Shown here piece by piece: positions 3,203 through 53,801 of a stretch of DNA of 64,000 bases (its first letter is position 1; each line of letters begins with the position of its first letter). The DNA is from Clostridium ljungdahlii DSM 13528 (GTDB lineage: Bacteria; Bacillota; Clostridia; Clostridiales; Clostridiaceae): assembly GCF_000143685.1 (NCBI RefSeq), contig NC_014328.1:2356001-2420000 (forward strand), given 5' to 3'. Under the pieces are notes generated by a model that searched no databases, was not told where the DNA came from, and saw nothing but the letters and a program-made list of their open reading frames with translations. Made by a program: the position numbers and the translations under genes.

Positions 3203-3379
3203 ATCAATGAATCTTACTTAGTGGAAAAAGCAGATATCCCAAATCTTTGATTTGGTGATAGTCGCTTTCTCTTTAGAGTTTTGTTTCTCCCACTAAGTTT
3301 AGCTGAATTATCTAGGGGCGTAGATACTGTTAGCTCCCTCTTTGATAAAAGTGGGAGTGTTACAGTAGGTAGCCATCAG
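3203..3379 (-). repeat. Intergenic hairpin element, copy 1 (177 bp)
   Basis: The element reads on the minus strand from CTGATGGCTACC (after TTTAT at 3384-3380) to ATTCATTGAT at 3203. It has two GGGAG/CTCCC hairpins. The right hairpin loop holds a 42-bp cassette with its own stem (CCAAATC/GATTTGG). It lies between lctB and lctC, and its second to fourth bases are the lctB stop codon. There is no target duplication and no ORF. It matches copies at 16018, 32725 and 53579. Confidence 0.88.
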
Positions 3380-4164
3380 ATAAATTTAAGTTCTTTAAGC
3401 TTTTTTGAAAGTCTATCTGCAAGTTCAATTCCATTTCCCTTCCACATTTCTTTATCATTATTCACTTCTGGTGGGAATATTCTTTCTACCTGGGTTGCAG
3501 ATCCATTTAATCCATATTTATTTTCATCCTTATCTTCAAAATCCTTGTACCCAAATACTTTTACTTCTCTATCTTTGGTTTCAAGTTTCTTTTTATAAGA
3601 TGGAAGTCTAGGCTGAAATATATCTTTTTCCACTGTTAAAAGACAAGGATATTTTATTTCAGCTACTTCAACTGTATTTGGCATATCCATTTTCACTACC
3701 ATGGACTTTTCTTCAACCTTTTCTATACTAAGTGCATTAGCTATATGTGGTATTTGCAAGTATTCAGCCATTTCAGGTCCAACTTGTGCAGTATCTCCAT
3801 CTGTAGTCTGCTTTCCACATAATATTAAATCTATATGTCCCATTTTTTTTATTCCCTGAGCAATAGTATAAGAAGTTGCAAGTACATCAGCTCCTGCAAA
3901 TTTTCTGTCTGAAAGCAGCACACCTTCATCTGCACCCATCATATAAGCTTCTTTTATAACGTCAGCAGCCTGGGGAGGTCCCATACTTATAACTTTTACT
4001 GTTCCTCCTTTTTCTTCTTTGATCCTAAGTGCAGTTTCAAGTGCATACAGATCATAAGGATTCATTTTGGAATCTATACCTTCTCTTTTTAAAACACCAG
4101 TTACAGGATCAACTTCAACTTTAGAAGTTCCTGGTACCTGTTTTATACATACTAATATATCCAT
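3376..4164 (-). CDS. lctB: Electron-transfer flavoprotein beta subunit
   Basis: This 262-aa EtfB starts [20 protein letters not shown], typical of the family, and keeps the nucleotide-binding [19 protein letters not shown] segment at about 116-134. In bifurcating Etfs this subunit holds the FAD that exchanges electrons with NAD(H) and ferredoxin. It follows larA by 37 bp and precedes etfA. The last codon ATC and the TGA stop lie at the junction with repeat copy 1: TTTAT belongs to the gene and CTGA to the element, so the C-terminus ...KFI is partly set by the insertion. The start ATG follows GGAGGTAACTTAA. Confidence 0.92.
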
Positions 4165-4201
4165 TTAAGTTACCTCCAAAATTTTTATATGAATTTATAA
4201 A

Positions 4202-5476
4202 TTAACTTACAATAACTGAAACTCCATCAGGAATAACTGCTACCTTAGCATCTTTTCCCATAATGTCATATGCCCTAGTTAAAGCTTCAGAAATAGTTAA
4301 AGCGTGCTGCATATGAATATTTTTTATAATTTCAGGATCACACATATCTGTGACCATTATTACAGTATGTGTACTTAGTATTCTTGCAAGTATTTGAGAT
4401 TCCCATTGGTCTGGTACTGTTTCTCCTCTAGGCACTTTAGAAACTTTCTCTAAAAACTCCTTTGGAGAATTTACATTTGCCAAATTATTATAGAATCCTT
4501 CACCGCCATGACCATCATCACATGCAGCTACCATTATTATTACACCGCCTTCTTTGCAAGTAGCTTCAGCTGCAGTCATGCCTTTAACTGACTGATATAT
4601 ATTTTGATCCAGTGGATATCCTCCATTTGTCGAAATGGCAATATCAGCTTGGACTTTGTCAACTTTAGATAAGTCCATCACAAATTTACATCCCTCTTCA
4701 TGGGCAATCCTGCTGTCTCCTGCAAAAGCATTTATTATTTTCTTATCTTCATCTATAACTACATTTACTATAAATGCAAGCTTCGCTTTTTTTGCAGCAT
4801 ATAACATGTCCCTGTGTATAGGATTATTGTTAAGCTTACCTGTCCTTGCATAAGGGCTTGCTATGAATTCAGAACAATGGTTTGCCATTATGGTCTTTGC
4901 AGAAGCTATCCCAGGCAAAATGCTCTTTCTTCCTCCTGAAAATCCTGCAAAAAAGTGAGATTCTATAAAACCTTCTGCTATTAAAAGTTCAGTTTCAGCA
5001 GCAATTTTGTTTATTATGAGATCTCCACCAGAAGGAAGTGTTCCAATTTTAACAAGGCTCTCTTCGTCTCTAGAATCATGTATTATTATATTTTCATTTT
5101 CAACTATATCTTTCCCAAATTTATCTATAAGTTCTTCTTTAGTAGTAGCCCTGTGAAATCCTGTTGCTATTAAAATTTTTATATCAATATCTGGATTTAC
5201 CCTTCTTATTCTTTTTAAAAGTATTGGTGTTATTATTTTACTTGGTACAGGTCTTGTATGGTCGCTGGTTATTATAACCATATCTTTTTTACCCTTTACT
5301 AAATCCTCCAATTTAGGTGAAGCAATGGGATTATCAAATGCCCTTTCAACTATTTCAGCTTCCCCAAATTGAGGTTTGTAATCTTCTGCCCTTGACCTTA
5401 AAACTCCAACTAAATTTTTATCATCAATTTGAATTTCAATTGTCTTTTTACTATAAGGTAAACATACTTTAGACAT
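4202..5476 (-). CDS. larA: Nickel-dependent lactate racemase
   Basis: At 424 aa it has the usual LarA length. The N-terminal signature SDHTRPVP is near residue 75, ATGFHRATTKEEL near 110, and FFAGFSGGRKSILPG near 180 contains the lysine that binds the pyridinium pincer cofactor; a conserved NHCSEF histidine follows. The enzyme interconverts D- and L-lactate. I place the start at the ATG at 5476, nine bases after AGGAG, rather than two codons upstream at a TTG. Sitting between permease and LDH, it would let one stereospecific dehydrogenase use both isomers. The cofactor-making genes larB, larC and larE are not in this window. Related LarA-like racemases acting on other 2-hydroxyacids exist, so the lactate substrate rests partly on context. 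Confidence 0.87.
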   Translation of the reverse strand: MSKVCLPYSKKTIEIQIDDKNLVGVLRSRAEDYKPQFGEAEIVERAFDNPIASPKLEDLVKGKKDMVIITSDHTRPVPSKIITPILLKRIRRVNPDIDIKILIATGFHRATTKEELIDKFGKDIVENENIIIHDSRDEESLVKIGTLPSGGDLIINKIAAETELLIAEGFIESHFFAGFSGGRKSILPGIASAKTIMANHCSEFIASPYARTGKLNNNPIHRDMLYAAKKAKLAFIVNVVIDEDKKIINAFAGDSRIAHEEGCKFVMDLSKVDKVQADIAISTNGGYPLDQNIYQSVKGMTAAEATCKEGGVIIMVAACDDGHGGEGFYNNLANVNSPKEFLEKVSKVPRGETVPDQWESQILARILSTHTVIMVTDMCDPEIIKNIHMQHALTISEALTRAYDIMGKDAKVAVIPDGVSVIVS

Positions 5477-5505
5477 AATCAAATTCTCCTTTCGTAAGTA
5501 TTCAT

Positions 5506-7032
5506 TTAATTAAATCCAAATATAGGTCCTGCAAAGTAAGCAATAATTCCTAAAACAATTACATAAACTATGCAAAACTTTAACGTTGAATTTAGTATCT
5601 TTCCTTCTTGCCCTACAAGTCCAGTAGCCGCTGTTGCAACTGCTATACTTTGAGGTGAAATCATCTTTCCTGCTGTTGCTCCTCCAGTATTAGCCGCTGC
5701 AAGCCAGTACGGATTTAATCCAAGCGATTTAGCAACTTCAACCTGAAGTCCTCCAAAGAGTACATTAGCTGAAGTATCACTTCCAGTTACAAAAGTTCCA
5801 AGCGCACCAATTATAGGAGCAATAAGTGGATAAAATCTCCCAGTTGCAGCTACTAAAACAACCGATATAGACTTTATCATCCCGCTGTAGCCCATTATTT
5901 TTGCAAGAGCTACTATGGCAATTATAGTAATAGCTGACTTGTACATCTGTTTAAAGGTACTTCCCAGAACTCCAACTATTTCTGTAATCTTAGCACCCTG
6001 AATAAGTCCACCAATAAATGTGGCGATTATAATTAAAGTTCCTGGATTTGACAGCCAGTTAAATGTATAAGGTGCCCCTCCTTTTCCCGAATAAATAAGT
6101 ACTGAAGTTTTTACGGAAGACAACGCCTTATTTATTGGTGGGAACAGTGCACTACTTAATATTACAAATAAAAATACCAGTATAAAAGGCATCCATGCAA
6201 GTATTCCTTCTTTTGTGGAAACCTTTTCTGCTTGCTTATCAGCAGTATCTTTATAAAATATTTTAGCTACGGCAATTGTAACTATCATACAGCAAACAGA
6301 TCCAAGTATAGCTGGAAGCTCAGCTCCAAGATATTTTGCAGCGAGAAGCTGCGGAACTGCGAAAGAAATTCCTGATGCAAGGGAAATTCCCCAAAATCCC
6401 TTTATGGCTTTCACACTTTTTCCTGTAAGCATTACAAGCACAACTGGAACAATCACAATTAGAATTACAAGCTGCAGTCCTACTGCATAACTTAACTGAG
6501 TTACACTAATATTTGCAACTTTTGCAAGAGTTGTTACCGGAATTCCTATTGCGCCAAAAGCAGTAGGTGTTGTATTTGCAATAAGACATATAATAGCTGC
6601 AAACACAGGATCAAATCCAAGTCCAGCAAGTATACTTGCTGGTATAGCAACAGCAGTTCCAAATCCTGCTATGGCCTCCATAAATCCACCAAAAGCCCAA
6701 GCCAATATAAGAACTAATATTCTTTTATCTGTAGTAATACCTGTCATCATCTTTTTTATTACATCCATGCTTTTAGTGTAAACTGTAATATTATAGGTGA
6801 AAACAGCAGCTATAATGACAATCATAATAGGCCATATTGCAAGAGCTATACCTTCAAGTGCCGCTGTAATTGCATTAAAAATTGGCATTTTCCATACAAT
6901 TATAGCTAAAATCATAGTAACAACTAATGTGAAAGGGCATGTCTTTTGTCCCGGTATTTTTAGAGCCCCAAGCGATACCATTAGCCAAACAATTGGTATG
7001 AGTGCAATAAGAAAAAGTAAATAATTGTTCAT
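5506..7032 (-). CDS. lctP: L-lactate permease (LctP family)
   Basis: This 508-aa integral membrane protein has about 12-14 hydrophobic segments throughout. Family landmarks are GGFMEAIAGFGTAVAIPASIL at about 114-134, the LIANTTPTAFGAIGIPV segment and VTGSDTSANVLFGGLQ near 400. LctP proteins take up lactate (or glycolate) with protons or sodium. It is the first structural gene of the lct operon, preceded by an AGGGGG ribosome site and an operator about 25 bp upstream. The start ATG at 7032 is the only good choice. The adjacent racemase and LDH make lactate the likely physiological substrate. Confidence 0.93.
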   Translation of the reverse strand: MNNYLLFLIALIPIVWLMVSLGALKIPGQKTCPFTLVVTMILAIIVWKMPIFNAITAALEGIALAIWPIMIVIIAAVFTYNITVYTKSMDVIKKMMTGITTDKRILVLILAWAFGGFMEAIAGFGTAVAIPASILAGLGFDPVFAAIICLIANTTPTAFGAIGIPVTTLAKVANISVTQLSYAVGLQLVILIVIVPVVLVMLTGKSVKAIKGFWGISLASGISFAVPQLLAAKYLGAELPAILGSVCCMIVTIAVAKIFYKDTADKQAEKVSTKEGILAWMPFILVFLFVILSSALFPPINKALSSVKTSVLIYSGKGGAPYTFNWLSNPGTLIIIATFIGGLIQGAKITEIVGVLGSTFKQMYKSAITIIAIVALAKIMGYSGMIKSISVVLVAATGRFYPLIAPIIGALGTFVTGSDTSANVLFGGLQVEVAKSLGLNPYWLAAANTGGATAGKMISPQSIAVATAATGLVGQEGKILNSTLKFCIVYVIVLGIIAYFAGPIFGFN

Positions 7033-7058
7033 TTTAATCCCCCTTGAAAAAGCCTTAT

Positions 7059-7091
7059 TGGTATTATGGTAATACCACTTTTGACATTATA
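7059..7091 (-). promoter_or_regulatory. lct operon promoter -10 with FadR/LldR-type operator
   Basis: TGGTATTATGGTAATACCA (7059-7077) is an inverted repeat with 8-bp arms and a 3-bp spacer. The TGGT...ACCA ends are typical of FadR-subfamily GntR operators. A TATAAT on the minus strand (7086-7091) puts the transcription start within or next to the operator, so a bound repressor would block lctP transcription. The natural ligand is presumably lactate. The -35 is unclear. Confidence 0.68.
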
Positions 7092-7189
7092 TTAGCATAA
7101 TCATTTCAATTTTTCTACAATTGTTATATTGTTAACATTACTTATAATAAATTGAATTAATTAAATTATGTTGTAGTCGTAACGTTTTC

Positions 7190-7239
7190 ATGAAAATTAG
7201 GGTACAGATAAAAATTTTTATCTGTACCCTAATTTTCAT
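7190..7239. repeat. 50-bp perfect palindrome between regulator and permease
   Basis: The two 25-base halves are exact reverse complements with no spacer; the centre is AAAAATTTTT and the outer part contains AGGGTACAG/CTGTACCCT. It lies between the regulator stop (7328) and lctP. As RNA it would fold as a long hairpin, so it is probably the regulator gene's terminator, though it could also be a protein site. Confidence 0.72.
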
Positions 7240-7256
7240 ATTATAGTGTATTAGCC

Positions 7257-7284
7257 GTTAACTTATTAACGTTAATAAGTTAAC
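7257..7284. repeat. 28-bp perfect palindrome
   Basis: GTTAACTTATTAAC is followed directly by its exact reverse complement. It is AT-rich, 44 bp downstream of the regulator stop codon and 17 bp from the 50-bp palindrome. Either a hairpin or a binding site would fit. Confidence 0.6.
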
Positions 7285-7327
7285 TATTTTATTTAAGCAA
7301 AAGGCTTTTTTTACATTCATCAGATCA

Positions 7328-8026
7328 CTACATATTATTTCTAATATACTTATCTGTAAAATCTAAATGTTTTTTCATTTCTTCTGAAGCCATTGCAGCA
7401 TCATGATTTTTAATAGCTTCACATATTTTAATATGCTGTGCTGCAAGTACTGATAGATTTCCTTCATCTACCAATATCTTACTTCTAGCCTCTTTTAAAA
7501 AGGAATCCATTAAAAAAGACATTGAATTTAAAATATTTTTTATCAAAAAATTTTCAGTAACTTGGGCAATTTGATAGTGAAATTGTTTATCAAGTTCTAC
7601 ATTATCTTTCTCATCTTTAGAGGTCTTGAAAGCATTTGCTAATTTCTCCAGATTACTTAGCTGCTCGCCATTTATTTTTTCTGCAGCTATAGCTGCTGTC
7701 TTCACTTCTATAATCTTTCTAACTTCCATTATTTCTTCAGGTTTCCCACCTTGGAGCATAAATATTATGGACAATGGTTCAAACAAACTATCCTCAAAGC
7801 TTTGCTTTATAAAATTTCCTTCTCCCTGCCTGCTGTCTATGAGTCCTATAACTTGAAGTGCCCTTAAAGCCTCCCTTATAGAAGTCCTACTAACTTTAAA
7901 GTTATCAACTAACTCTCTTTCAGAAGGAAGTTTGTCTCCCCTTTTTAAAGTACCATCCATAATCATATTTTCAATTTGCACTATTACATGTTCATATACC
8001 TTTGTACTCTTTATAGGTGTAAACAT
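7328..8026 (-). CDS. GntR/FadR-family transcriptional regulator of lactate genes
   Basis: This 232-aa protein has an N-terminal winged helix (GDKLPSERELVDNFKVSRTSIREALRAL then GEGNFI, about residues 30-75) and a C-terminal all-helical FCD ligand-binding domain with the metal-type histidines (QFHYQIA, AAQHIKICEAI). It is a DNA-binding repressor or activator. An upstream GTG at 8038 overlaps the GAGGTGG ribosome site, so I start at the ATG at 8026, eight bases after AGGTGG. It is divergent from nothing and lies directly upstream of, and on the same strand as, lctP. Control of the lct operon through the site at 7059 is inferred from position and operator type. Confidence 0.85.
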   Translation of the reverse strand: MFTPIKSTKVYEHVIVQIENMIMDGTLKRGDKLPSERELVDNFKVSRTSIREALRALQVIGLIDSRQGEGNFIKQSFEDSLFEPLSIIFMLQGGKPEEIMEVRKIIEVKTAAIAAEKINGEQLSNLEKLANAFKTSKDEKDNVELDKQFHYQIAQVTENFLIKNILNSMSFLMDSFLKEARSKILVDEGNLSVLAAQHIKICEAIKNHDAAMASEEMKKHLDFTDKYIRNNM

Positions 8027-8073
8027 CAAATGAGCCACCTCAATTCATTTTATCTTATATTTGCATAAGTCTT

Positions 8074-8736
8074 CTATATATTTTGAGCAGAGCCTACAAA
8101 AACATCATTCCACTTTGTATATATATCAAATAAGCTTACCACATCCTGCTCATTATACAATAATATTTTTTGTTTTTTCATTTCAGGCATTCTCTTTATA
8201 TATTCATCATCTTTTGCTATTTTACTAAAAGTTTTAGCCAAATTTGAACCACTTATTACTTCGTTTTCCCTATTTATTCCAAATTCTTTTTCCAGTGCTT
8301 TTAGTCCTATGGATTTATGCATTTCTTTTTCATATTCTTTTTGCAAATCTATACTTATAAAATAATCTTTTATATTAAATTCTATACCATATTTCTCAAA
8401 AAGGTAGTTTATTACTGTAAAATCATTGTTGCCCGAAAAAGTCACTATATATTTTTTTCCCATTTCAATCATAGTTTCAAAGTAACTTCTTGCTAAATCA
8501 AGTATATCTCTTACATCTTTGCTGTTTTCTATCATATACTGAGTTACTTTTAGAATTTGATTTTTGTAATCATAAAAGCAGCATCCAAATACTCCTATAC
8601 ATATTGGTTTCTTATATATATAATGTTCTAAATCAAAAAATACAGAATCTTTAAAAACACAGTTATTGTTTTCTACTTTTAGTGAGCTTTCTGTCATAGG
8701 CATTTCAACACCAACATCATTAAGTCTTTCTATCAC
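8074..8736 (-). CDS. Ribonuclease H-like (YprB-type, DEDD) putative exonuclease
   Basis: Three motifs of the DEDD exonuclease fold are visible: FFDLEHY (DxE) near residue 35, SGNNDF about 65 residues later, and LYNEQDVVSLFDI near 195. They coordinate two metal ions for 3'-end hydrolysis of nucleic acid. An in-frame TTG at 8754 has no ribosome site, so I favour the GTG at 8736 behind GGAGAAGAG; this choice is uncertain. A paralogue with the same C-terminal motif lies at 12370-13167. It forms a two-gene unit with the HAD phosphatase upstream. The substrate is unknown. Confidence 0.65.
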   Translation of the reverse strand: MIERLNDVGVEMPMTESSLKVENNNCVFKDSVFFDLEHYIYKKPICIGVFGCCFYDYKNQILKVTQYMIENSKDVRDILDLARSYFETMIEMGKKYIVTFSGNNDFTVINYLFEKYGIEFNIKDYFISIDLQKEYEKEMHKSIGLKALEKEFGINRENEVISGSNLAKTFSKIAKDDEYIKRMPEMKKQKILLYNEQDVVSLFDIYTKWNDVFVGSAQNI

Positions 8737-8776
8737 TTTATCACTCTTCTCCAATTCATTTTAAAACATAAACAAT

Positions 8777-9502
8777 TTATATATCATTTATGCACTTTGT
8801 TTCTAGTTTGTATATCATATCTTTTCTTTCTACTATTACTTTTGCCTTTTCGCTTAAAACACTATTATCTTTTATTTTTTTCAAAAGTTCCCGGGTTGGA
8901 TTTACACAGACAGGATTTCCAACCATATTGAGCATTGCAAAATCTCCTGAAGTATCCCCATATGCATAACTTTTTGCTAAATCTATACCATATTTTTCAA
9001 CTAATAATTCTATGGCTTTTTTCTTGCTAGCACTATCCCACATAGGAACAACTTCTCCCGTATAAATATCCCTACTATCTATAATATACACAGCTCCTAC
9101 ATAATCGTCAAATCCATATCTAACAGCCATTTCCCTTACAAGCTCCACTGGACTTCCAGATACAGTTATAACCTTGTGTCCCTGCTCCTTATGCCATTTT
9201 ATCATATCCCTAGTATAAGAATACACCCTATGGCCCTTTTGTGAGACTACATTTTTGGCTATAAATTCTATTTGAGATCTGTGAAGACCTTTTATAGCTT
9301 CAATATATATACCAGCAATCTTTAAAAGATAATTATCATAATTTCCCTCTCTTTTATCCCACTTTTCATATTCTGGTTTAACTTCCTTATACCATCTTTC
9401 TCCAGGTATTACTTCATATTTTACCAATTTTTTAAATACCTCTGTTATAAGACCCTCTCTATATAAAGTACCATCAATATCAAAAAAAGCTGCTATACTC
9501 AT
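8777..9502 (-). CDS. HAD superfamily (subfamily IB, SerB-like) hydrolase
   Basis: The 241-aa protein begins with the HAD nucleophile motif AFFDIDGTLY. It has motif II in VITVSGSP near residue 115, a conserved lysine in SASKKKAI, and motif III/IV YGDTSGDFAMLNMV near 190. This is the phosphoserine-phosphatase-like IB group, acting on small phosphomonoesters in the cytoplasm. The start ATG follows AGGAG. The closely following RNase H-like gene suggests co-transcription. The substrate is not recognisable from sequence. Confidence 0.82.
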   Translation of the reverse strand: MSIAAFFDIDGTLYREGLITEVFKKLVKYEVIPGERWYKEVKPEYEKWDKREGNYDNYLLKIAGIYIEAIKGLHRSQIEFIAKNVVSQKGHRVYSYTRDMIKWHKEQGHKVITVSGSPVELVREMAVRYGFDDYVGAVYIIDSRDIYTGEVVPMWDSASKKKAIELLVEKYGIDLAKSYAYGDTSGDFAMLNMVGNPVCVNPTRELLKKIKDNSVLSEKAKVIVERKDMIYKLETKCINDI

Positions 9503-9602
9503 ACTCCTTATTCTCCTTAACTATTATTTGAAAAAACATAAATATATCTTATTATTTTAACATACATACTTATAATATCAATATTCGAAAAAAAATAATC
9601 GG

Positions 9603-9634
9603 TTGACAGTATATTTCTAATATGATATTATAAT
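9603..9634 (+). promoter_or_regulatory. Sigma-A promoter of the feo operon
   Basis: TTGACA at 9603-9608 is followed by TATTAT at 9626 (17-bp spacing) or by a perfect TATAAT at 9629 (20-bp spacing). Confidence 0.65.
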
Positions 9635-9643
9635 ATTAGAAAT

Positions 9644-9662
9644 GATAATGATTTTCATTATA
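9644..9662 (+). promoter_or_regulatory. Fur box
   Basis: GATAATGATTTTCATTATA differs at only a few positions from the classical Fur consensus GATAATGATAATCATTATC. It lies just after the -10 and 27 bp before feoA. This predicts repression when iron is plentiful. Confidence 0.85.
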
Positions 9663-9688
9663 TTTAACAAATTGGGAGGTGGCTTTAT

Positions 9689-9916: not shown

Positions 9917-9953
9917 AATTATTAATAATGAAGTTATAGACGGGAGGAGTATT

Positions 9954-15985: not shown

Positions 15986-16017
15986 TATAAAACCTCCAAT
16001 ATAAATTATACCTTTAT

Positions 16018-16142
16018 CTGATGACTACCTACTGTAACACTCCCACTTCTATCAAAGTGGGAGCTAACAGTAGCTACGCCCCTAGATAATTCATCTAAAC
16101 TTAGTGGGAGAAATAAACTCCCACTAAGTAAGATTCATTGAT
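16018..16142 (+). repeat. Intergenic hairpin element, copy 2 (125 bp, minimal form)
   Basis: It reads rightwards from CTGATGACTACC after TTTAT (16013-16017) to ATTCATTGAT. The left hairpin is CTCCCACTT/AAGTGGGAG, extended by an outer CTACTGT/ACAGTAG. The right hairpin is ACTTAGTGGGAG/CTCCCACTAAGT. No cassette is inserted, so this is the simplest copy. It lies upstream of galE. Confidence 0.88.
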
Positions 16143-27677: not shown

Positions 27678-27699
27678 TAAAGACATATTAATCCTATAA

Positions 27700-27878
27700 C
27701 GAATGATAGCTCTCCACAAATTAACCTTGTGACAGTTTTACATATATTTTATGTAAACCCAATTATTTAGCATTAAAGCATCTGCTAAATAACTTCGGCA
27801 AAATTTCCTTTCAAGTTGTATCATAGTGCTTAACTCCTCAACTCTACTCTTAAATTCTGCACCTCTACCTCAGTTATT
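27700..27878 (-). ncRNA. Lysine riboswitch (L box)
   Basis: On the minus strand the conserved core appears in order: GAGGTAGAGGTGC, AAGAGTA, GAGGAG, AAAGGAAATTTTGCCGAAG, an AGCAGATGCT hairpin, TGGGTT, AACTGTCAC and GTGGAGAGCTATC. These are the signature segments of the five-helix L-box aptamer. With the terminator downstream it should switch off lysP when lysine binds. Confidence 0.95.
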
Positions 27879-31640: not shown

Positions 31641-31886
31641 AATTGTTCCCCTCCTCATTTTTAAATTATTTGTTTTGTATTACACTATCAGTTTGCTCCA
31701 TATAAAAATTATTACTCTATAAAATTAAATGAAAATATACTATATTATAGGGTATTTAGAAACTTTTATAATCGAAATTTTTTCTCTACTATACTATGGA
31801 AAGCCATAAATTTAAAGCTTATTGAAACTTTGCATGATTAAAGTAGTATAATAAATATAAGCTAATTTTAAAAGTAGGTGATTTTG

Positions 31887-32744
31887 TTGTATAAAAAAGG
31901 AGACTTTCACTTACATACTAATGCCTCGGATGGTAACTTATTTCCGGCAAAACTAGTATGCATGGCAAAACGAGAAGGTGTTGATATTATTGCAATAACA
32001 GACCATGACACCTTATCTGGTATAGATGAAGCCTTAATGGAAGGGAAAAAAATAGGTATTAAAGTTATTCCTGGAATAGAACTATCTACCTTGTATGAAA
32101 ATAAAAGCGTTCACATACTAGGGTATTTTAAAGATATCTCTCATATATCTCCAAAGTTTAAAGACTTTCTAAAAGAAATGAACTTATACAGAATAAATAG
32201 AGCAAAAAAAATAGTAAATAATTTATATAAATTTTTCAATATAAAACTTGATTTTGAAAGCATATTAAAGATAGCTAATGGAGTTGTAGCAAGACCTCAT
32301 ATAGCAAAAGCCATAATAAATGCAGGTTATAATTACAGTTTTGATTACATATTTTCAAATTTTATAGGGGATTCCAGTCCTGCCTATGTTCCAAACAAAA
32401 AACTTTCTACAACAGAAGGAATAAAAATGCTTATGTCTTTAAATGCTATGGTTGTACTTGCCCACCCTATACTTATAAAAGATATAAATATAGAAGATTT
32501 AATTAAACTTCCCTTTCATGGTATAGAAGCTATTTATCCTGCTAATAAGGTTTGTGATACAGAAAAATTCATAAAGTATGCTAAAAAGTATAAAAAAATC
32601 ATAACTGCAGGATCTGATTTCCATTCTGCAAACAAAAAAAGTTTAAAGCACGGTCATACTATAGGTGAAGTTTATTTAGATGAAAATCAAATAAATGATT
32701 TCTTAAGCAAACTTAAAAGTTTATCTGATGACTACCTACTGTAA
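31887..32744 (+). CDS. PHP-domain metal-dependent phosphoesterase
   Basis: About 285 aa with the four PHP motifs: DFHLHTNASDG near residue 5, ITDHDT near 37, VIPGIELST near 64 and AGSDFHSANK near 245; ARPHIAKAI adds a further ligand. The family hydrolyses phosphodiester or phosphomonoester bonds; relatives such as YciV/RNase AM act on nucleotide 3',5'-bisphosphates and RNA 5' ends. The start is unclear: GTG 31878, TTG 31884 or TTG 31887, and the last has the best distance from AGGTG. The final six codons and the TAA lie inside repeat copy 3, so the C-terminus SDDYLL comes from the insertion. Confidence 0.82.
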   Translation: MYKKGDFHLHTNASDGNLFPAKLVCMAKREGVDIIAITDHDTLSGIDEALMEGKKIGIKVIPGIELSTLYENKSVHILGYFKDISHISPKFKDFLKEMNLYRINRAKKIVNNLYKFFNIKLDFESILKIANGVVARPHIAKAIINAGYNYSFDYIFSNFIGDSSPAYVPNKKLSTTEGIKMLMSLNAMVVLAHPILIKDINIEDLIKLPFHGIEAIYPANKVCDTEKFIKYAKKYKKIITAGSDFHSANKKSLKHGHTIGEVYLDENQINDFLSKLKSLSDDYLL

Positions 32745-32900
32745 CACTCCCACGCACACAGTGAAAGCGACTATCACCAAATCAAAGATTTGGGATATCT
32801 GCTTTTCTATCAAAGTGGGAGCTAACAGTAGCTACGCCCCTATATAATTCATCTAAACTTAGTGGGAGAAACAAAGTTCCACTAAGTAAGATTCATTGAT
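32725..32900 (+). repeat. Intergenic hairpin element, copy 3 (176 bp)
   Basis: It starts with CTGATGACTACC after TTTAT (32720-32724) and ends with ATTCATTGAT. Here the 42-bp cassette (CCAAATC/GATTTGG stem, AAAGC...GCTTT base) sits in the left hairpin loop, whereas in copies 1 and 4 it sits in the right one. The PHP gene ends 20 bp inside it. Confidence 0.88.
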
Positions 32901-46844: not shown

Positions 46845-46875
46845 ATTATGAGTCTCCCGTCCTTTTTTAGTTGTC

Positions 46876-47403: not shown

Positions 47404-47494
47404 TATCCTTTACCAACATATATAAACAGAGTTAAATCCTTATTATATATGTTCTGTAAAAGTAGGAAAAAAACCTCCATTTTATGGAAAAATA

Positions 47495-48199
47495 TTAAAG
47501 TTTTTTTAGCTCCCTATAGTATTTAATCATAAAACCTGCTGTGGTTCTCTCAGCTTCTTTTATAATGGTTGCAGCTACTTTAGAATATCTTTCATCTCTA
47601 GATTGTATATTTATATTCTTCATATATACGCTATTGGCCATTATTGCATTGTTTTTTACAAAATCCTCCACTTTGTCATATACTATAGCACCTTCTTCAG
47701 CTACAAAAGAATAATCTGTCATAAGCCTTCCTATTATCCATAGCTCAAATCTTCTATGGCTGTTCAAAAGTTTGTTATTTACGTGATGAGGGACTGTTAC
47801 ATCTTGAATAAGGTGGCAGGATGCACCAAAATAAAATAGAGCTCTTTCCACTTCTTTATTCTTTAGAAATTGTATTGATTTATCATAATATTTCTCACAT
47901 TCTGTAAGTGCATCCGAAAATCCATATAACCCTTTTCCTTTACTCACATGGTAAAAATGATTTGAACTCTTAAAGTCCTGATCTGCCCATGTAACTCCTG
48001 CATTTAACCTTTTAACATGTTTTCTAAAAAACTCATACTCTTCCATATAATTATCATTTTTTAATATTTCAATAGCACGTATGATTATAAATTTGTGAAC
48101 AGTACAATTAGTTTTCATAATTTTTTTCTTAAGTGGGTTAACTGCGAAAAATATTTTTCTTACAGCACTTCCATAGGTTTTTTCAATTTCTTGTTTCAT
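47495..48199 (-). CDS. Zinc-dependent phospholipase C-like protein
   Basis: The 234-aa protein has the zinc-ligand pattern of the PLC/S1-P1 nuclease fold: VHKFIIIRAIEIL near 34, GVTWADQDFKSSNHFYH near 68-84, and FGASCHLIQDVTVPHHVNNKLLNSHRRFELW near 125-155. The family hydrolyses phospholipids and includes the C. perfringens alpha-toxin catalytic domain. Unlike secreted members, no signal peptide is seen: the N-terminus is charged (MKQEIEKTYGSAVRK...). It could act inside the cell or be released otherwise. The start follows AGAGGAGATTGTAGTT. No C-terminal C2-like domain is present. Confidence 0.75.
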   Translation of the reverse strand: MKQEIEKTYGSAVRKIFFAVNPLKKKIMKTNCTVHKFIIIRAIEILKNDNYMEEYEFFRKHVKRLNAGVTWADQDFKSSNHFYHVSKGKGLYGFSDALTECEKYYDKSIQFLKNKEVERALFYFGASCHLIQDVTVPHHVNNKLLNSHRRFELWIIGRLMTDYSFVAEEGAIVYDKVEDFVKNNAIMANSVYMKNINIQSRDERYSKVAATIIKEAERTTAGFMIKYYRELKKL

Positions 48200-48239
48200 C
48201 TAACTACAATCTCCTCTTTAATTTAAATATACACTTAAA

Positions 48240-49547
48240 TCAACGTCCTTGAACTTTTAAAATTAATATTATTCCAAGTACTGTTGTCATAAGTATGTAT
48301 GGATAAATATTTTTATTTATTTCTGAAACTTTCTTAATCTTACCTCTTTTTATACTATATAAATAACCTTCTTTACCGTCAAGTAATAATAAAGATTTAT
48401 CATATATTTTTATACTTGAAATTTTAGTTCTTTCACTAAATTTAACTTTTTCCTCCGGTAAGCCTGTTCCTCGAAAGCTATATACTATATTATCAATATT
48501 ATCATAAAAAAATATACAATTTCTATCGTTTAAGTCACCTTTTGAATCCACTGCAAGAGTTCCAATACTACTTACTGTTTTATGCTGATATATAGGAGCT
48601 TGTGGATTTGTCGTAGGGTGATTGTCCAGTATAAATTGCAGTGGAGAATTCTTCACACTTTTAAACTTAGGTGAAGTAACTGGATCTCCCCCACTATAAT
48701 CTGGCCATCCATACCACCTTCCCTTTTTTACTTCATATATATAATCTGTATCCCCAATAACAGGTCTGCTTCCTCTATCTTCCATCCCCCCTACAGCACA
48801 TATTAATTTGCTGCTGTCTGTAAAACCCATTCCTGTAACATTCCTTATTCCCCAAGCAAAAGTATCACTTGTCCCGCTTTCCAAATTATATATTATAATA
48901 CAAGCATTTCCTGGGAAATGTGCTGGAACTATTTGACCTTTTATGCTTTTAGTATTATAGCTTTGAAAAGCACCTGTCTTACTCTTTCCAAAATTTATTC
49001 CCCTAAGAGTTATATTCTCTGGGCTCATATCATGGGCATAAAGATTGCCATTTACCCACTTATTATCATCTCCTACTACACCTGAATTAGTAGCAGAACC
49101 TATGGAAATATATAAGCATGCATTGCTTACTTTTACTAAACTGTCCTTATAATCACCATAATTAGGCAATCCCTTTATTAAAATTGTATTTTTACCTTCA
49201 TTCATATTATAGCAATATATATTATCTCCTGAAGAATAATATATATTGCCCTTATAATAGTCCATGCTGTGAATATTCAAATTTGAATTCTTCAATATGT
49301 CATAACTTTTCCCGTTATCTTTTATAATCTGTATCCTATTACTATATGCTATGTAATAATTTTGTTTTTCGTCTTTTGTAAAGTCAACTGCACCTTTTAA
49401 TCTGGAATACTTTAAATCATAACTTAGAGTATTGTCCTTCATTTGAACTTCAACTTTATAATGAGTTTTAGAAAAATAATTTACAATTACAAAAGTTAAT
49501 ACAAATACAACTGTAATTGTAAATAAAATTTTTATAATTTTTTTCAT
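48240..49547 (-). CDS. Membrane-anchored beta-propeller protein (PQQ-dehydrogenase-like fold)
   Basis: A 435-aa protein with an N-terminal anchor (residues 3-22) and a C-terminal hydrophobic helix (YPYILMTTVLGIILIL). The large outer domain between them has soluble-glucose-dehydrogenase-like motifs: GDYKDSLVKVSN, AHFPGNACIIIYNLESG, WGIRNVTGMGF and KKGRWYGWPDYSGGDPV. Those families oxidise sugars with PQQ, but here the catalytic residues cannot be confirmed and PQQ is unlikely in such an organism. The ATG at 49547 follows GGAGAG. Role unknown. Confidence 0.65.
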   Translation of the reverse strand: MKKIIKILFTITVVFVLTFVIVNYFSKTHYKVEVQMKDNTLSYDLKYSRLKGAVDFTKDEKQNYYIAYSNRIQIIKDNGKSYDILKNSNLNIHSMDYYKGNIYYSSGDNIYCYNMNEGKNTILIKGLPNYGDYKDSLVKVSNACLYISIGSATNSGVVGDDNKWVNGNLYAHDMSPENITLRGINFGKSKTGAFQSYNTKSIKGQIVPAHFPGNACIIIYNLESGTSDTFAWGIRNVTGMGFTDSSKLICAVGGMEDRGSRPVIGDTDYIYEVKKGRWYGWPDYSGGDPVTSPKFKSVKNSPLQFILDNHPTTNPQAPIYQHKTVSSIGTLAVDSKGDLNDRNCIFFYDNIDNIVYSFRGTGLPEEKVKFSERTKISSIKIYDKSLLLLDGKEGYLYSIKRGKIKKVSEINKNIYPYILMTTVLGIILILKVQGR

Positions 49548-49592
49548 ATACACTACTCTCCTCAAAATTATAGATCCTAGAATATATATATT

Positions 49593-49636
49593 AAAAAAGA
49601 ACCCTGCATATGAATAACTAAATGCAGAGTTCTTTT
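49593..49636 (-). terminator. Terminator of the rubrerythrin-like gene
   Basis: GAACTCTGCAT and ATGCAGGGTTC (one mismatch) form a stem followed by TTTTTT on the minus strand. It lies 32 bp after the stop. Confidence 0.8.
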
Positions 49637-49667
49637 AATTTTAATATATGGCTTATGAATTTTTAGC

Positions 49668-50231
49668 TTATTTTTTATCTGTAAGCTGTATATGTATTTT
49701 TTCTACATATGCTAGCACATTAAATACATCTCTAATTTTATTATCTTCCATACGGTTAGCATACTTTTCATAGTATTCCACTGCATGTTTTTCCCTTTTA
49801 CATGCCATTTCAAGCAATTTATCATTACCTGCGTATTTAGAGTAATCTAATTTTTTGAGATTAGGTTCAGAAGTAAATCCCCCTATTTTCTTGTGCACTG
49901 AAGCATGCATATACTCTATTCTGGAAAGCGCTTTAAACATATCTTTTATTTTTGAATCCTCAGCTAATTTTGAAGCTTCTTTATAAAAATCTCCATTAAA
50001 TACTTCCAGCTTAAATGCATTATTCACTATTTTTAAATGCCATTCATCCAAATTGTGCCCTAAAGTGTTGATTTTATGTTCATCTTCAACTAAATATTTT
50101 ACAGGAGCTCCACAAAAAGGGCAGAACATTATGTTTCCTGAAGTGTTTTTTCTAAGAAAAGCCTCCTTATTGAAAAAATAATTTTTATCATCTATAGCCA
50201 TACCACAGATGCTACAAATTAATTTGTTCAT
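49668..50231 (-). CDS. Ferritin-like/rubrerythrin-type protein with N-terminal zinc ribbon
   Basis: The 187-aa protein has CSIC near residue 6 and CPFC near 38, forming a zinc-ribbon or rubredoxin-like pair. A four-helix bundle follows with KLEVFNGDFYKEASKLAED, RIEYMHASVHKKI, KREKHAVEYYEKYAN and YVEKIHIQL. The E...ExxH-like pairs fit a di-iron site. Family members reduce peroxide in anaerobes, but the electron donor is not evident. The domain order is ribbon first, reversed from classical rubrerythrin. The start is chosen as the ATG at 50231; an in-frame TTG lies 9 bp upstream. Confidence 0.72.
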   Translation of the reverse strand: MNKLICSICGMAIDDKNYFFNKEAFLRKNTSGNIMFCPFCGAPVKYLVEDEHKINTLGHNLDEWHLKIVNNAFKLEVFNGDFYKEASKLAEDSKIKDMFKALSRIEYMHASVHKKIGGFTSEPNLKKLDYSKYAGNDKLLEMACKREKHAVEYYEKYANRMEDNKIRDVFNVLAYVEKIHIQLTDKK

Positions 50232-50392
50232 CAAAAACAATCCTTTCTATCATAAATTTTCCGATAACTTTACAATTTAAGTTTAGTATATCACAAAATG
50301 CCTAATAGAAACTTTTATGAGTAAAAAGAATATACTTCAAATCCTTATCATAATTATTAATATTAATTCTAATTTTAATTACGGGAGTTTTT

Positions 50393-51730
50393 ATGAAAAG
50401 AGACAGGTTTTTAAAAAATTCACTTATTTTAATTTGTTCAAATTTAATTACTTCTATATTTGCATTTATATTTCCCATAATATTATCTAGAGAACTCGGG
50501 GCTGAAGGAATAGGTCTCTATGGACTAATAATGCCTATATACGATTTGTTCATATGCCTTATATCGGGAGGTATGGTAGCAGCCATTTCCAAAATAGCTG
50601 CCGTATATTTTAGCAAAGATGATTTTAATAACTTAAATAATTCCATAGATGCATCTCTAACTTTTAATTCACTCTTTGCTTTACTTATAGTCTGTACCGT
50701 CTTTATAAATGCTCCTTACATAGGTACTAAAATAGTAGATGACACTAGATCGGTACATGCCCTGCAGGTTATGTGCCCAGCTATGTTTTTTATAGGATTA
50801 TCCTCTATACTAAAAGGTTATTTTTATGGGATATCTCAGGTTAAAATACCTGCAATTATAGATATATCAGAAAAATTTCTTAGAATTGTAATAATAATTA
50901 GTATAATTACTGTATTTTCCTTGAAAGATGTTGGTTCCACCGTTACTGCAGCTTATACAACCCTTGCCATAGGAGAGTTTATAAGTTTCATCTTACTTTA
51001 CATAATGTATAAAACTAGAAGGAGAAAATTTAGATCTAGTTCTTCAAATCCCGAGGAAAAACTTCAACTTTTATTCAATATACTGGTACTATCTTTTCCC
51101 CTTTGTTTAAATGGATTTTTATCTACTGCACTTGGTGCTGTCTCTACACTTATAACTCCAAGAAGGCTTGTAGCATCTGGTATAGAATACAACTTAGCCC
51201 TAGCTATGATAGGTAAATTTGACGGCATGGCTTTAAATATAATATTTTTCCCAATTACAATTATAAATTCCATATCAATGGTTCTCATTCCAGATTTATC
51301 AGAAAAGATGAGCCGTAGGAATTACTGGTCTATAGAAAAAAGGATTCATCAAATTATAAAAATATCTTTATTTTTAGGTATCTGTACCATGGTAATTTGC
51401 CTTTTCACTGGAGATTACTTAGGACAATTATTTTATAACAGAAATGACCTGGGAAATTATATAAAATTTGCTTCACTAGCTGCTCCTGTTACCTTTGTCT
51501 CCTTTTCTACTTTTGGTATTTTAAATGGCATTGGCAAACAAAATATACTATTAAAAAACTCTTTGATTTCTGCCATTTTAGAAGTCATATTAATATACAT
51601 ACTTGCAGGCATATCATGGATAAATATATATAGTACCGCAATAAGTTTAATAATAACTTCATCTACCACTTTAATTTTAAATATAAGAGAAATAAAAAGA
51701 AGCAGCAGAAGCTGCTGTCATATTCTATAA
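50393..51730 (+). CDS. Stage V sporulation protein B-like lipid flippase
   Basis: A 445-aa MOP-superfamily protein with about 12-14 membrane helices. The N-terminus MKRDRFLKNSLILICSNLITSIFAF and the ELGAEGIGLYGLIMPIYDLFI loop are typical of SpoVB/MurJ-like exporters. SpoVB is needed for spore cortex and probably flips lipid-linked peptidoglycan precursors. It is shorter than Bacillus SpoVB (about 518 aa). The start follows ACGGGAG. It is monocistronic. General polysaccharide export is the alternative. Confidence 0.82.
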   Translation: MKRDRFLKNSLILICSNLITSIFAFIFPIILSRELGAEGIGLYGLIMPIYDLFICLISGGMVAAISKIAAVYFSKDDFNNLNNSIDASLTFNSLFALLIVCTVFINAPYIGTKIVDDTRSVHALQVMCPAMFFIGLSSILKGYFYGISQVKIPAIIDISEKFLRIVIIISIITVFSLKDVGSTVTAAYTTLAIGEFISFILLYIMYKTRRRKFRSSSSNPEEKLQLLFNILVLSFPLCLNGFLSTALGAVSTLITPRRLVASGIEYNLALAMIGKFDGMALNIIFFPITIINSISMVLIPDLSEKMSRRNYWSIEKRIHQIIKISLFLGICTMVICLFTGDYLGQLFYNRNDLGNYIKFASLAAPVTFVSFSTFGILNGIGKQNILLKNSLISAILEVILIYILAGISWINIYSTAISLIITSSTTLILNIREIKRSSRSCCHIL

Positions 51731-51793
51731 TCAATTCACAATTTTGGTACATTTTCTGTGGTAACAGAAAATCATCCTTAATTGTGAATTGTA
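51731..51793. terminator. Compound hairpin after the SpoVB-like gene
   Basis: Outer arms CAATTCACAATT/AATTGTGAATTG and an inner ATTTTCTGT/ACAGAAAAT stem with a GGTA loop. No T run follows directly. A related sequence lies at 24735. Confidence 0.6.
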
Positions 51794-51830
51794 CATCATT
51801 CATTGTAAATTGATTTAGCGTTTATTATAT

Positions 51831-52292
51831 TTAAAACTGTTTCATTAAATTTGCCATTTCTATAGCTGACATAGCTCCATCATATCCTTTATTTCCACCT
51901 TTAGTTCCTGCTCTTTCTACAGCTTGCTCTATATTATCTGTGGTAAGAACACTAAATATTACTGGCATACCGCTTTCAAGGGAAACACTTGCTACTCCCT
52001 TTGACACTTCATTTGATACATAATCAAAATGAGGTGTTTGTCCTCTTATTACTGCTCCCAGACAAATAACTGCATCATACTTTTTAGAAAAAGCCATTTT
52101 CTTTGAAACCATTGGTATTTCAAAGGCTCCTGGAACCCAGGCTACCTCAATGTCTTCTTCTTGTGCTCCATGTCTTTTTAAACAATCTAAAGCACCCTCT
52201 AACAATTTCGTGCCTATAAATTCATTAAATCTTGCAATTACAATTCCAAATTTTAAACCTTCTGCAACTAATTTTCCTTCATACATCTTCAT
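51831..52292 (-). CDS. ribH: 6,7-dimethyl-8-ribityllumazine synthase
   Basis: A 153-aa enzyme with [15 protein letters not shown] near 13-27, [11 protein letters not shown] near 50, [23 protein letters not shown] near 76-98 (His catalytic) and [21 protein letters not shown] at the end. It condenses the butanone phosphate from RibB with the RibD product. It is the last gene of the rib operon, 21 bp after ribBA, with AAGAGGATTATTT before its ATG. Confidence 0.96.
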
Positions 52293-52313
52293 AAATAATC
52301 CTCTTTTCTATTT

Positions 52314-53519
52314 TTATTTATATAATTTTAATAAATGTCCCATCTTTTCTCGTTTAGTTTTCATATACCTCTTACTTTCCTGTGAACAATCTACTTCAAT
52401 AGGTACTCTCTCTACTATTTCCAATCCATAATCTGAAAGTCCCTCAATTTTCTTTGGATTATTCGTAAGAAGTTTTATTTTTTTAATACCTATATCTTCA
52501 AGTATTTGTGCTCCTATCCCATAATCACGCATGTCTGCTGGAAATCCCAATGCTAAATTTGCCTCTACTGTGTCCATTCCATTTTCTTGAAGCTTATAAG
52601 CTTTTATCTTATTTAAAATTCCTATGCCTCTTCCTTCTTGACTCATATATAAAAGTACACCTTTGCCTTCTTTTTCTATCTGTTTAAGTGCAGATTGAAG
52701 CTGCTGTCCACAATCGCACCTAAGTGAGTGAAAAACATCTCCCGTAAGGCACTCTGAATGTACTCTTACAAGGACAGGTTCTTTTTCAAAATTATCTCCC
52801 TTTACAAGACACACATGCTCATCACCATTTAATATATTTTTATAACCTATAATTTTAAATTTTCCAAATCTAGTTGGAAGATTAGCAGAAGCCACTCTTT
52901 TAACTAATTTCTCTGTTTTTTTTCTATAGGCTATTAAGTCCACTATGGTAACAATTTTTAAATTATGTTCTTTAGCAAACTCCATCAAGTCATCTCTTCT
53001 TGCCATAGTTCCATCATCTTTTATTATTTCACATATTGCTGCTGCACCTTTAAATCCTGCAAGCTTAGCTAGATCAACTGAAGCTTCCGTATGACCAGTT
53101 CTGTCAAACACTCCATTTTCCTTAGCTATAAGCGGAAATATGTGTCCTGGTCTTCTGAAGTCATCTTTAGAATTTGAAGCAGCTATCATATTTATGGTAT
53201 GTGCCCTTTCAAAAGCTGATATTCCCGTTGTAGTATCTTTATAGTCAACAGTTACAGTAAATGCTGTTTCATGATTGTCTGTATTGTGCTGAACCATAGG
53301 ATTTAATCCAAGCTTTACTGCTATTCCTTCTTCAATTGGTGCACACAAGAGACCTTTTGCATATTTGATCATAAAATTAATATTTTCTCCAGTTGCCTTT
53401 TCTGCAGGTATAACTAAATCACCTTCATTTTCTCTTCCTTCATCATCTACAATTATGATCATTTTCCCTTGTTTAAGATCTTTTATTGCATCTTCTATAG
53501 TATCAAATTTAAAATTCAT
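52314..53519 (-). CDS. ribBA: Bifunctional DHBP synthase / GTP cyclohydrolase II
   Basis: The 401-aa fusion has an N-terminal RibB part ([17 protein letters not shown] near 20-36, RRPGHIFPL and [11 protein letters not shown] near 140-155) and a C-terminal RibA part from about 205. The latter has [21 protein letters not shown] (zinc Cys) and [12 protein letters not shown]. It makes dihydroxybutanone phosphate from ribulose 5-P and opens GTP. Its start follows AAGGGAG. A 278-bp gap holding repeat copy 4 separates it from ribE, breaking the operon's tight spacing. Confidence 0.96.
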
Positions 53520-53578
53520 GATTTTTATCTCCCTTCAAAAATAAACGTTTAGGCATCTAAAAGAAAATGCCTTATTGC

Positions 53579-53801
53579 ATCAATGAATCTTACTTAGTGG
53601 GAAAAGCAGATATTCCAAATCTTTGATTTGCTGATAGCCGCTTTCTCTTTAAAGTTTTGTTTCTCCCACTAAGTTTAGATGAATTATCTAGGGGCGTAGC
53701 TACTGTTATGCACAGCATAAGAACTCTAAATCGCTGAAGCTCAAGAGTTCTAATATCTCTCACTTTGATAGAAGTGGGAGGTTACAGTAGGTAGCCATCA
53801 G
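53579..53801 (-). repeat. Intergenic hairpin element, copy 4 (223 bp)
   Basis: On the minus strand it starts CTGATGGCTACC after TTTAT (53806-53802) and ends ATTCATTGAT at 53579. It has the 42-bp cassette (with a few changes) in the right hairpin and a further insert with an AGAACTCT/AGAGTTCT stem after the left hairpin. The ribE stop codon lies in its first four bases. Confidence 0.88.

What the first reader, a model, noticed from the sequence alone, without database searches (positions are those of the whole stretch)
3203..53801. Four-copy family of intergenic elements resembling miniature IS200/IS605 derivatives
Copies at 3203-3379 (-), 16018-16142 (+), 32725-32900 (+) and 53579-53801 (-) share both termini: CTGATGRCTACCTACTGTAA at the left and AGTAAGATTCATTGAT at the right. 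All four are preceded by TTTAT and lack target duplications and terminal inverted repeats. Each has two subterminal hairpins with GGGAG/CTCCC stems. This fits single-strand transposition by a TnpA of the IS200/IS605 group, with TTTAT as the insertion site and TTGAT resembling it at the right end. The right end, with its terminal hairpin, could also be an omega-RNA-like scaffold for a TnpB elsewhere in the genome. The repeats are seen directly; the transposition and RNA roles are inferred.
Basis: partly seen in the sequence, partly recalled or inferred. Interest (0 to 1): 0.7.

Follow-up and report, generated by a model that had tools for sequence, protein, structure and literature searches.

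The report
Self-guided TTTAT-targeting miniature mobile elements
The four repeats belong to a large family of tiny protein-less jumping elements of clostridia, which sit exactly after the letters TTTAT and carry a short internal sequence that pairs both with that target and with their own far end, while the enzyme that moves them has not been found.

Summary
The four copies are real, at the stated coordinates, and are not a chance match. They belong to a large family: the window's genome (G000, 4,630,065 bp) holds at least 127 related left ends, and 74 of 194 sampled genomes of the order match. At 13 of 15 sites examined, a close relative has an empty site showing insertion directly 3' of TTTAT without target duplication. 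Its IS200/IS605 assignment is not established: no Y1 transposase match in G000, no shared ends in the 30 (of 54) Y1 loci read, and no lagging-strand bias. The TnpB/omega-RNA idea has no support.

New here: the left end is a covarying long hairpin. Its base helix pairs target TTAT plus the first two element bases with an internal guide RGATAA. The base after the guide matches the right end (C with GTTTAT, G with CTTGAT, T with ATTGAT). One guide thus fits both the target and the element's own right end. I read these as non-autonomous elements moved in trans, probably through a single strand. The enzyme is unknown. The nearest known family is bcr1 of Bacillus cereus; homology could not be tested.

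The parts
3203..3379 (-). Element copy 1 (177 nt, family A, module in hairpin 2); lies between an ORF 3376-4164 (-) and an ETF-alpha ORF 1967-3175 (-)
3380..3384 (-). TTTAT target of copy 1 (not part of the element)
   Evidence: the same site is empty in G005 with one TTTAT
3307..3313 (-). internal guide AGATAAT of copy 1
   Evidence: hit 2359307-2359384 minus
16013..16017 (+). TTTAT target of copy 2
   Evidence: empty site in G004 and G005
16018..16142 (+). Element copy 2 (125 nt, family A, no module)
16029..16035 (+). hairpin-1 5' arm CTACTGT (P2); 3' arm ACAGTAG at 16067-16073
16084..16090 (+). internal guide AGATAA + T: AGATAA pairs with TTAT|CT at the left junction; AAT can pair with ATT of the right end ATTGAT
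16100..16128 (+). hairpin 2 CTTAGTGGGAG...CTCCCACTAAG
16137..16142 (+). right-end motif ATTGAT
32720..32724 (+). TTTAT target of copy 3
   Evidence: empty in G004
32725..32900 (+). Element copy 3 (176 nt, module in hairpin 1; guide mutated to ATATAAT)
53579..53801 (-). Element copy 4 (223 nt, extra segments in both hairpins); lies between ORF 53798-54451 (-) and a ribBA-type ORF 52314-53519 (-)
53802..53806 (-). TTTAT target of copy 4
   Evidence: empty in G004
53683..53689 (-). internal guide AGATAAT of copy 4
   Evidence: hit 2409683-2409806 minus

Best explanation
These are copies of a family of non-autonomous miniature mobile elements. Shown: they sit exactly 3' of TTTAT without duplicating it. 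Their left end folds, together with the target, into a covarying stem whose base is target TTAT plus element bases 1-2 paired to an internal guide RGATAA. The base after the guide is usually complementary to the base that begins the right end NTT[G/T]AT. Inferred: movement runs through one strand of DNA. The guide presents the left junction, the right end and the new target in turn to a strand-transferring enzyme supplied in trans, and the right end (TTTAT or TTGAT) becomes joined to the left end in an excised form. It would thus work like the guide-directed peel-and-paste of IS200/IS605 (recalled), but with one shared guide placed 3' of the left hairpin. The enzyme is unknown; a Y1/HUH-type or similar nuclease is my first guess.
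For: Empty sites at 13 of 15 sites in at least one of two relatives (one of the 13, L007, is supported by only 22 nt past the junction). Helix covariation: 94.9% of cells paired, and 308 cells changed on both sides against 83.8 +/- 8.0 in shuffles and 9-48 when slid (alignment fitted to the model); the same holds on a plain MAFFT alignment of 17 sequences. An energy fold of copy 2 also pairs the flank with the guide. Flank-guide helix: of 112 copies in G000 that are in register with an intact GATAA, 104 pair at 6 of 6 positions and 8 at 5. Guide-right end complementarity: 99 of 107 and 109 of 122 in the census. Head-to-tail copies share one TTTAT junction. Six of six sites occupied in G000 and one relative differ in length, and presence patterns conflict, which suggests excision, repeated insertion or recombination.
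Against: No transposase sharing the ends was found: no Y1 match in G000 or G003, and no gene-sized copy among the 127 left ends of G000. No lagging-strand bias, which IS608-type transposition would predict (54 of 127 co-directional, p = 0.11, slightly the other way). Mispairs are strand-symmetric (G.T 43, A.C 35) and both strands fold well, so the data do not say which strand, or whether DNA or RNA, carries the structure. The right-end covariation rests mainly on three subfamilies and not on many independent changes. Eight of 107 and 13 of 122 copies do not fit it as measured.
Confidence: 0.5

Rival explanations
1. They are bcr1-type elements: a clostridial branch of the Bacillus cereus repeat bcr1, moved by an unknown, possibly site-specific recombination-like process acting on TTTAT in double-stranded DNA.
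For: [quoted passage not shown] The present family also has short gene-less copies, TTTAT on the left, often TTTAT on the right, and copies between genes on the same strand.
Against: No bcr1 sequence was available to compare. Against the double-strand mechanism: family A ends in TTGAT, not TTTAT, so the right motif belongs to the element and is not a copy of the target; guide pairing is not expected of a site-specific recombinase.
Confidence: 0.3
2. RNA-level mobility: the element is a small structured RNA that inserts by reverse splicing or target-primed copying, its guide selecting TTTAT as an internal guide sequence does in introns.
For: Structure, guide and covariation fit an RNA as well as ssDNA. 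Sites just downstream of strong hairpins are about two-fold over-represented (28 of 186 vs 7.9% of 1500 control TTTAT sites at <= -12 kcal/mol, Fisher p 0.002), though some of the 28 are head-to-tail copies.
Against: No Rfam match, so no known intron core. G.U-type mispairs are not clearly favoured over A.C (43 vs 35). The overall upstream-fold distribution does not differ from controls (p = 0.19).
Confidence: 0.12
3. Omega-RNA / TnpB: the element is a guide-RNA scaffold for a TnpB elsewhere in the genome.
For: The right-end motif can pair with an internal segment next to where a guide would start; TnpB matches exist in 10 of 13 genomes of the genus.
Against: No TnpB sharing the ends was seen in 20 of 43 TnpB loci; two have a complete copy nearby, near the density expectation of 1.0. 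G006 and G012 carry elements (17 and 1 by R1) but no TnpB match.
Confidence: 0.04
4. Cis-acting RNA regulators or processing signals that were spread by mobility and are now kept for function (operon-internal copies).
For: Copies 1 and 4 lie in sense orientation between same-strand ORFs, next to ETF-alpha and ribBA-type genes.
Against: Positions are not conserved even between very close relatives; mispairs accumulate symmetrically.
Confidence: 0.04

Closest known systems
bcr1 (group A repeats bcr1-bcr3) of the Bacillus cereus group
   Same: Short (147-167 bp in the table of PMC2267715), high-copy, gene-less, structured, associated with TTTAT, often in UTRs/operons (passages of PMC6542083, PMC3446304, PMC2267715; other details recalled)
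   Different: Its describing paper's title calls it specific to the B. cereus group (title seen in a reference list; paper not readable); the family here is in clostridia. Sequence and guide homology could not be compared. No internal guide was mentioned in the passages seen.
IS200/IS605 elements and their miniature derivatives
   Same: Constant 5' target motif, no target duplication, no terminal inverted repeats, subterminal hairpins, guide pairing with the cleavage site (mechanism recalled)
   Different: No Y1 transposase with these ends found; one guide, 3' of the left hairpin, fits both ends; no lagging-strand bias
Group A IStrons (e.g. CdISt1)
   Same: Insert 3' of T-rich pentamers including TTTAT, no target duplication (PMC4227781 section 15)
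   Different: IStrons end in TCAG, carry a group I intron and IS200/IS605 ORFs; these elements end in TT[G/T]AT and have no intron match in Rfam
REP/BIME sequences mobilised by RAYT (TnpA-REP)
   Same: Small gene-less hairpins moved in trans by a Y1 enzyme (recalled)
   Different: Longer Y1 genes that I take for RAYT-like (not tested) are listed in G004, G005, G006, G008, G010 and G012 but not in G000, G003, G009 or G011. Two of them (L122, L123) are flanked by a different palindrome; one (L115) has a complete copy at its 3' end.

Membership tests
IS200/IS605-derived miniature element | Insertion 3' of a fixed short target, no target duplication | tested here: met
   empty sites, 13 of 15 sites; flank TTTAT in 97 of 112 in-register copies
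IS200/IS605-derived miniature element | Autonomous element with the same ends encoding Y1 TnpA | tested here: not met
   no PF01797 match in G000; 30 of 54 Y1 loci of the genus read: one copy (L115) beside a Y1 gene, on the other strand, none around one
IS200/IS605-derived miniature element | Guide sequences 5' of each end hairpin pairing with cleavage sites (recalled) | tested here: inconclusive
   a guide exists and pairs, but at the left end it lies 3' of the hairpin
IS200/IS605-derived miniature element | Orientation bias to the lagging-strand template (recalled) | tested here: not met
   54 of 127 co-directional with the fork, p = 0.11
bcr1 | Short dispersed repeat associated with TTTAT motifs | tested here: met
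   (left TTTAT in most copies; right TTTAT in family B, TTGAT in A and mostly in C)
bcr1 | Sequence homology to bcr1 | not testable with these tools
   no B. cereus-group sequence was obtained
Group A IStron | 3' terminus TCAG and group I intron | tested here: not met
   ends TT[G/T]AT; no Rfam match
TnpB omega-RNA | TnpB gene with the same right end | tested here: not met
   20 of 43 TnpB loci of the genus
MITE | Terminal inverted repeats and target duplication | tested here: not met
Known Rfam RNA family | Score over a family's gathering threshold | tested here: not met
   window at gathering scores and five loci at E <= 1

The most novel reading that the evidence does not exclude
A new class of self-guided mobile element: a single internal guide base-pairs in turn with the chromosomal target, the left junction and the element's own right end, so that target choice is written in the element and not in a protein. 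It would be moved by an enzyme (or RNA activity) of a kind not yet linked to transposition, and would be spread over two dozen or more clostridial genera, perhaps including bcr1.
Probability: 0.2. Interest if true: 0.85.

Novelty: new variant of a known kind. Interest (0 to 1): 0.6.

Why it matters
Gene-less TTTAT-associated repeats such as bcr1 are called mobile without a known mover (passages). This family gives a testable rule (guide = target = right end), more than a hundred copies in an acetogen lineage, empty sites in close relatives, and hosts without any Y1 match, which narrows the search for the enzyme. If target choice can be rewritten by changing a few bases, it would also be a very small programmable insertion unit.

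Tried and rejected
Autonomous partner: the genus (13 genomes) was searched for Y1 transposases (54 matches) and TnpB (43 matches). 30 Y1 loci plus L031/L032 were scanned with R1 (one strong match in L115 and three weak ones, E 0.07-0.3) and 20 TnpB loci with R2 (strong matches in L317 and L328, three weak ones, E 0.02-0.3). The flanks of ten Y1 loci were read and three. The three strong matches are complete copies: the one in L115 (183 nt) overlaps the 3' end of a Y1 gene on the other strand; a sister copy of the L317 TnpB (L325) and TnpB relatives of L328 (L318, L319, L327) have none. By copy density 1.19 and 1.00 copies are expected in these two sets. All 127 left ends in G000 were read: 122 have a right-end motif within 330 nt, giving 108-244 nt plus one 385-nt value from a degenerate hit; of the other five, four show a right-end variant by eye and one is degenerate. 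No gene-sized copy was seen. IscB (RRXRR) gave no match, but its control rang nowhere, so absence is not shown.

Phage or plasmid carriage: blastn with copy 2 found no match in the plasmid or phage collections, and the exact left-end pattern found none in viral contigs.

The first covariance model R1 was drawn with several 3' arms one column off (seen). Counts from it are not used for structure; R2 has the corrected pairing. R1 copy counts are used only as copy numbers; in G000 R1 gives 128 and R2 127. A first right-end count (121 of 128) looked only for the complementary base and is biased, so it is not used.

G.T/A.C asymmetry as a test of strand: uninformative. Upstream-hairpin preference: weak. 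No paper describing this clostridial family was seen in those listings, which cover only the held open-access library. Of PMC4022347 (C. autoethanogenum genome) only passages were seen; its table names intergenic repeat gaps without sequences.
Full report
OBSERVATION. The 25-nt left junction TTTATCTGATGRCTACCTACTGTAA and the 20-nt right end each occur exactly four times in the window with no mismatch; shuffles give 0.00 and 0.05 on average. Element lengths are 177, 125, 176 and 223 nt, and there are no terminal inverted repeats (7-8 of 20 positions). A 141-bp query finds 55 matching pieces in the own genome.

THE FAMILY. G000 is one contig of 4,630,065 bp, which I recognise from memory as the size of Clostridium ljungdahlii DSM 13528. 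Contig lengths identify G005 as C. ljungdahlii ERI-2 (NZ_LITT01000062, 267,441) and G004 as C. ragsdalei P11 (NZ_LROS01000066, 177,123). Besides the window's family A (CTGATGGCTACC ... ATTGAT) there is family B (CCGATGACTACC ... GTTTAT) and family C (CCGATC/AACGCTACC ..., mostly CTTGAT). A left-end covariance model scores 127 places in G000 (at most 150 candidates are scored, so this is a minimum). In the genus, R1 found 128, 144, 115, 115, 84, 43, 26, 20, 17 and 1 copies in ten genomes and none in three; R2 under stricter filters did not find the single one (G012). In the order, 74 of 194 sampled genomes and 24 of 49 genera match (at most 24 candidates scored per genome). The 80 titles listed include many Clostridium species, Haloimpatiens, Niameybacter, Konateibacter, Desulfosporosinus, Tindallia and several MAGs. 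There was no match in viral contigs (exact pattern), plasmids or phages (blastn with copy 2).

MOBILITY. The site of copy 2 is empty in G004 and G005. The left flank, ending in TTTAT, runs to subject base 2018 in L045 and the right flank starts at 2019, so exactly 125 bp were inserted and TTTAT is present once. Fourteen further sites, out of 26 prepared, were tested as joined flanks. Counting all 15, an empty site is found in at least one relative for 13: L001, L005, L007, L010, L013, L016, L017, L018, L023, L025, and family B sites L030, L037, L042. L007 is aligned through the junction for only 22 nt with small gaps. L003 is occupied in G004 and not resolved in G005 (its left flank matches two places in G004); L022 gave no match. 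All four window copies are among the 13 (L017 = 3203, L001 = 16018, L016 = 32725, L025 = 53579). Six sites are occupied in G000 and in one relative, and in all six the two copies differ in length: 177/125, 223/278, 176/205, 125/105, 126/177 and 178/47; three of these relatives' copies (205, 105, 47) have lost the guide. The presence patterns conflict: L005 and L017 are filled in G004 and empty in G005; L016 and L025 are filled in G005 and empty in G004. No single series of insertions on one tree explains both, so exact excision, repeated insertion at the same site, or recombination must be at work. This is an inference from three genomes.

MODULES. Length classes (125-134, 143-148, 171-182, 194-197, 209, 223-230) largely reflect segments sitting in the loop of hairpin 1 or hairpin 2. 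The commonest, ~50 nt (GCGAAAGCGACTATCACCAAATCAAAGATTTGGGATATCTGCTTTT and neighbours), occurs in either hairpin, in tandem, and in families A and C.

ANATOMY. With the corrected pairing, a plain alignment of 17 left ends gives 95.5% of cells paired against 87.0 +/- 0.9 in shuffles and 31-43% in slid versions. For 114 matches (103 distinct) the figures are 94.9%, with 308 cells changed on both sides against 83.8 +/- 8.0 shuffled and 9-48 slid; that larger alignment was fitted to the model and leans towards it. The helices are P1 (target TTAT + element bases 1-2 with RGATAA), P1b (GGC/GCC, GAC/GTC, CGC/GCG and a few others), and P2 with its upper stem. Energy folding of copy 2, as DNA or RNA, also pairs the flank with the guide (z -7.9 and -7.4 on the + strand; the opposite strand folds better, z -9.7 and -9.5). 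In G000, 112 of 127 hits are in register with an intact GATAA (my filter, so the guide side is fixed by choice); 104 pair at 6 of 6 positions of P1 and 8 at 5 of 6. Element base 2 and guide base 1 are C-G in 87, T-A in 21, and other in 4. The flank varies at the first T, outside the helix, in 6 of 112, at A to G, which still wobbles, in 5, and at other helix positions in 4. The base after the guide and the first base of the right end are complementary in 99 of 107 copies from many genomes (C-GTTTAT 71, G-CTTGAT 19, T-ATTGAT 6, G-CTTTAT 2, T-ATTTAT 1; 7 further copies without a motif). In the G000 census they are complementary in 109 of 122 (5 of 127 without a motif; five of the 13 exceptions are hits whose model end stops two bases early, and some others are wrong picks of the motif search). 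These counts follow subfamilies, so independent events are fewer. The Konateibacter copy (GATAAG with CTTTAT) and the Desulfosporosinus copy (family-B-like left end with GATAAG and CTTGAT) show that right end and left end types reassort.

MECHANISM. A right end joined to a left end reads NTT[G/T]AT|CY, which the guide RGATAAN' can pair with apart from one bulged base; the target TTTAT|CY pairs in a similar way. Head-to-tail copies with exactly this junction exist. The simplest reading is that one internal guide holds target, left junction and right end in turn for a strand-transfer enzyme acting on one strand. That resembles the guide logic of IS200/IS605 (recalled), yet the guide lies 3' of the left hairpin and is shared. 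No linked Y1 was found: G000 and G003 have no Y1 match, and the 30 of 54 Y1 loci held do not share the ends. One complete copy lies against the 3' end of a longer, RAYT-like Y1 gene in G006 (L115); five other such loci held have none, and about 1.2 copies are expected by density in the 30 loci. The lack of lagging-strand bias also speaks against a standard IS608-like process: 54 of 127 co-directional with the terminus set at 2.315 Mb, 54-58 for other settings (origin near base 1 and terminus between 2.16 and 2.40 Mb from sampled skew). Trans supply by an unlinked or since-lost enzyme remains open.

OMEGA-RNA IDEA. The only TnpB match of G000 has no such ends. In the genus, TnpB and copy number do not track: G006 has 17 copies and no TnpB match. 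Of 20 TnpB loci held, two have a complete copy nearby (L317, L328), near the density expectation of 1.0, and related TnpB loci have none.

KNOWN RELATIVES. The nearest description is bcr1. [quoted passage not shown] passages of PMC3446304 call bcr1-3 MITE-like; passages of PMC2267715 list bcr1 with other stem-loop families. The primary bcr1 paper was not held and no bcr1 sequence was at hand, so homology is untested. Group A IStrons share the target (PMC4227781 section 15) but not the ends. Rfam has no match.

VERDICT. Observation confirmed; mobility supported; IS200/IS605 origin unproven and weakened; omega-RNA unsupported. The shared guide is the new feature.

Noticed in passing
window 3203-3379 and 53579-53801: Copies 1 and 4 sit in sense orientation between same-strand ORFs (3376-4164 / ETF-alpha; 53798-54451 / ribBA-type, with an FMN riboswitch at 55757-55872), and the inserted left end supplies the stop codon TGA of the upstream ORF.
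   Followed up: partly
window 32725-32744: The upstream ORF 31878-32744 runs 20 nt into copy 3 and ends at a TAA of the element.
   Followed up: partly
L115 2040-2222 (G006): A complete 183-nt copy lies against the 3' end of a RAYT-like Y1 gene, on the other strand, overlapping its last codons; a possible lead to the mover or a coincidence.
   Followed up: partly
L030 (G000:C1:4466096-4466171, minus): A family B copy lies in a small cysteine-containing reading frame that looks continuous in G004 and G005 (read by eye).
   Followed up: partly
L012, L019, L079, L080: The ~50-nt hairpin module occurs singly, doubly or triply in either hairpin; how it moves between hairpins and copies is unexplained.
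   Followed up: no
L027, L115, L136, L195: A second inserted segment (CCCTAAAGGATAACG...CTAAGTG...CACTAAGAATNCTGTTA and variants) looks like a nested extra guide-hairpin-right-end unit.
   Followed up: no
right flank of L007 (query 217-298): Another repeat (GGATATTTTTTACAAACTTCAGCTCGTTAAATATTTTGATAAGGCTAAGCA) with dozens of copies in G004 and G005, often with an opposite-strand partner within ~250 nt.
   Followed up: no
L122, L123 (G005, G004): RAYT-like Y1 genes (185-aa frames) flanked by GGTGCCTGTCAC-type palindromes; no such match in G000.
   Followed up: no
L178 (JAAYAE010000032.1): A copy almost identical to Haloimpatiens copies on a 3,983-bp contig labelled Acholeplasmataceae; probably a binning error.
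   Followed up: no
window 27699-27875 and 55757-55872: Lysine and FMN riboswitches (Rfam).
   Followed up: no
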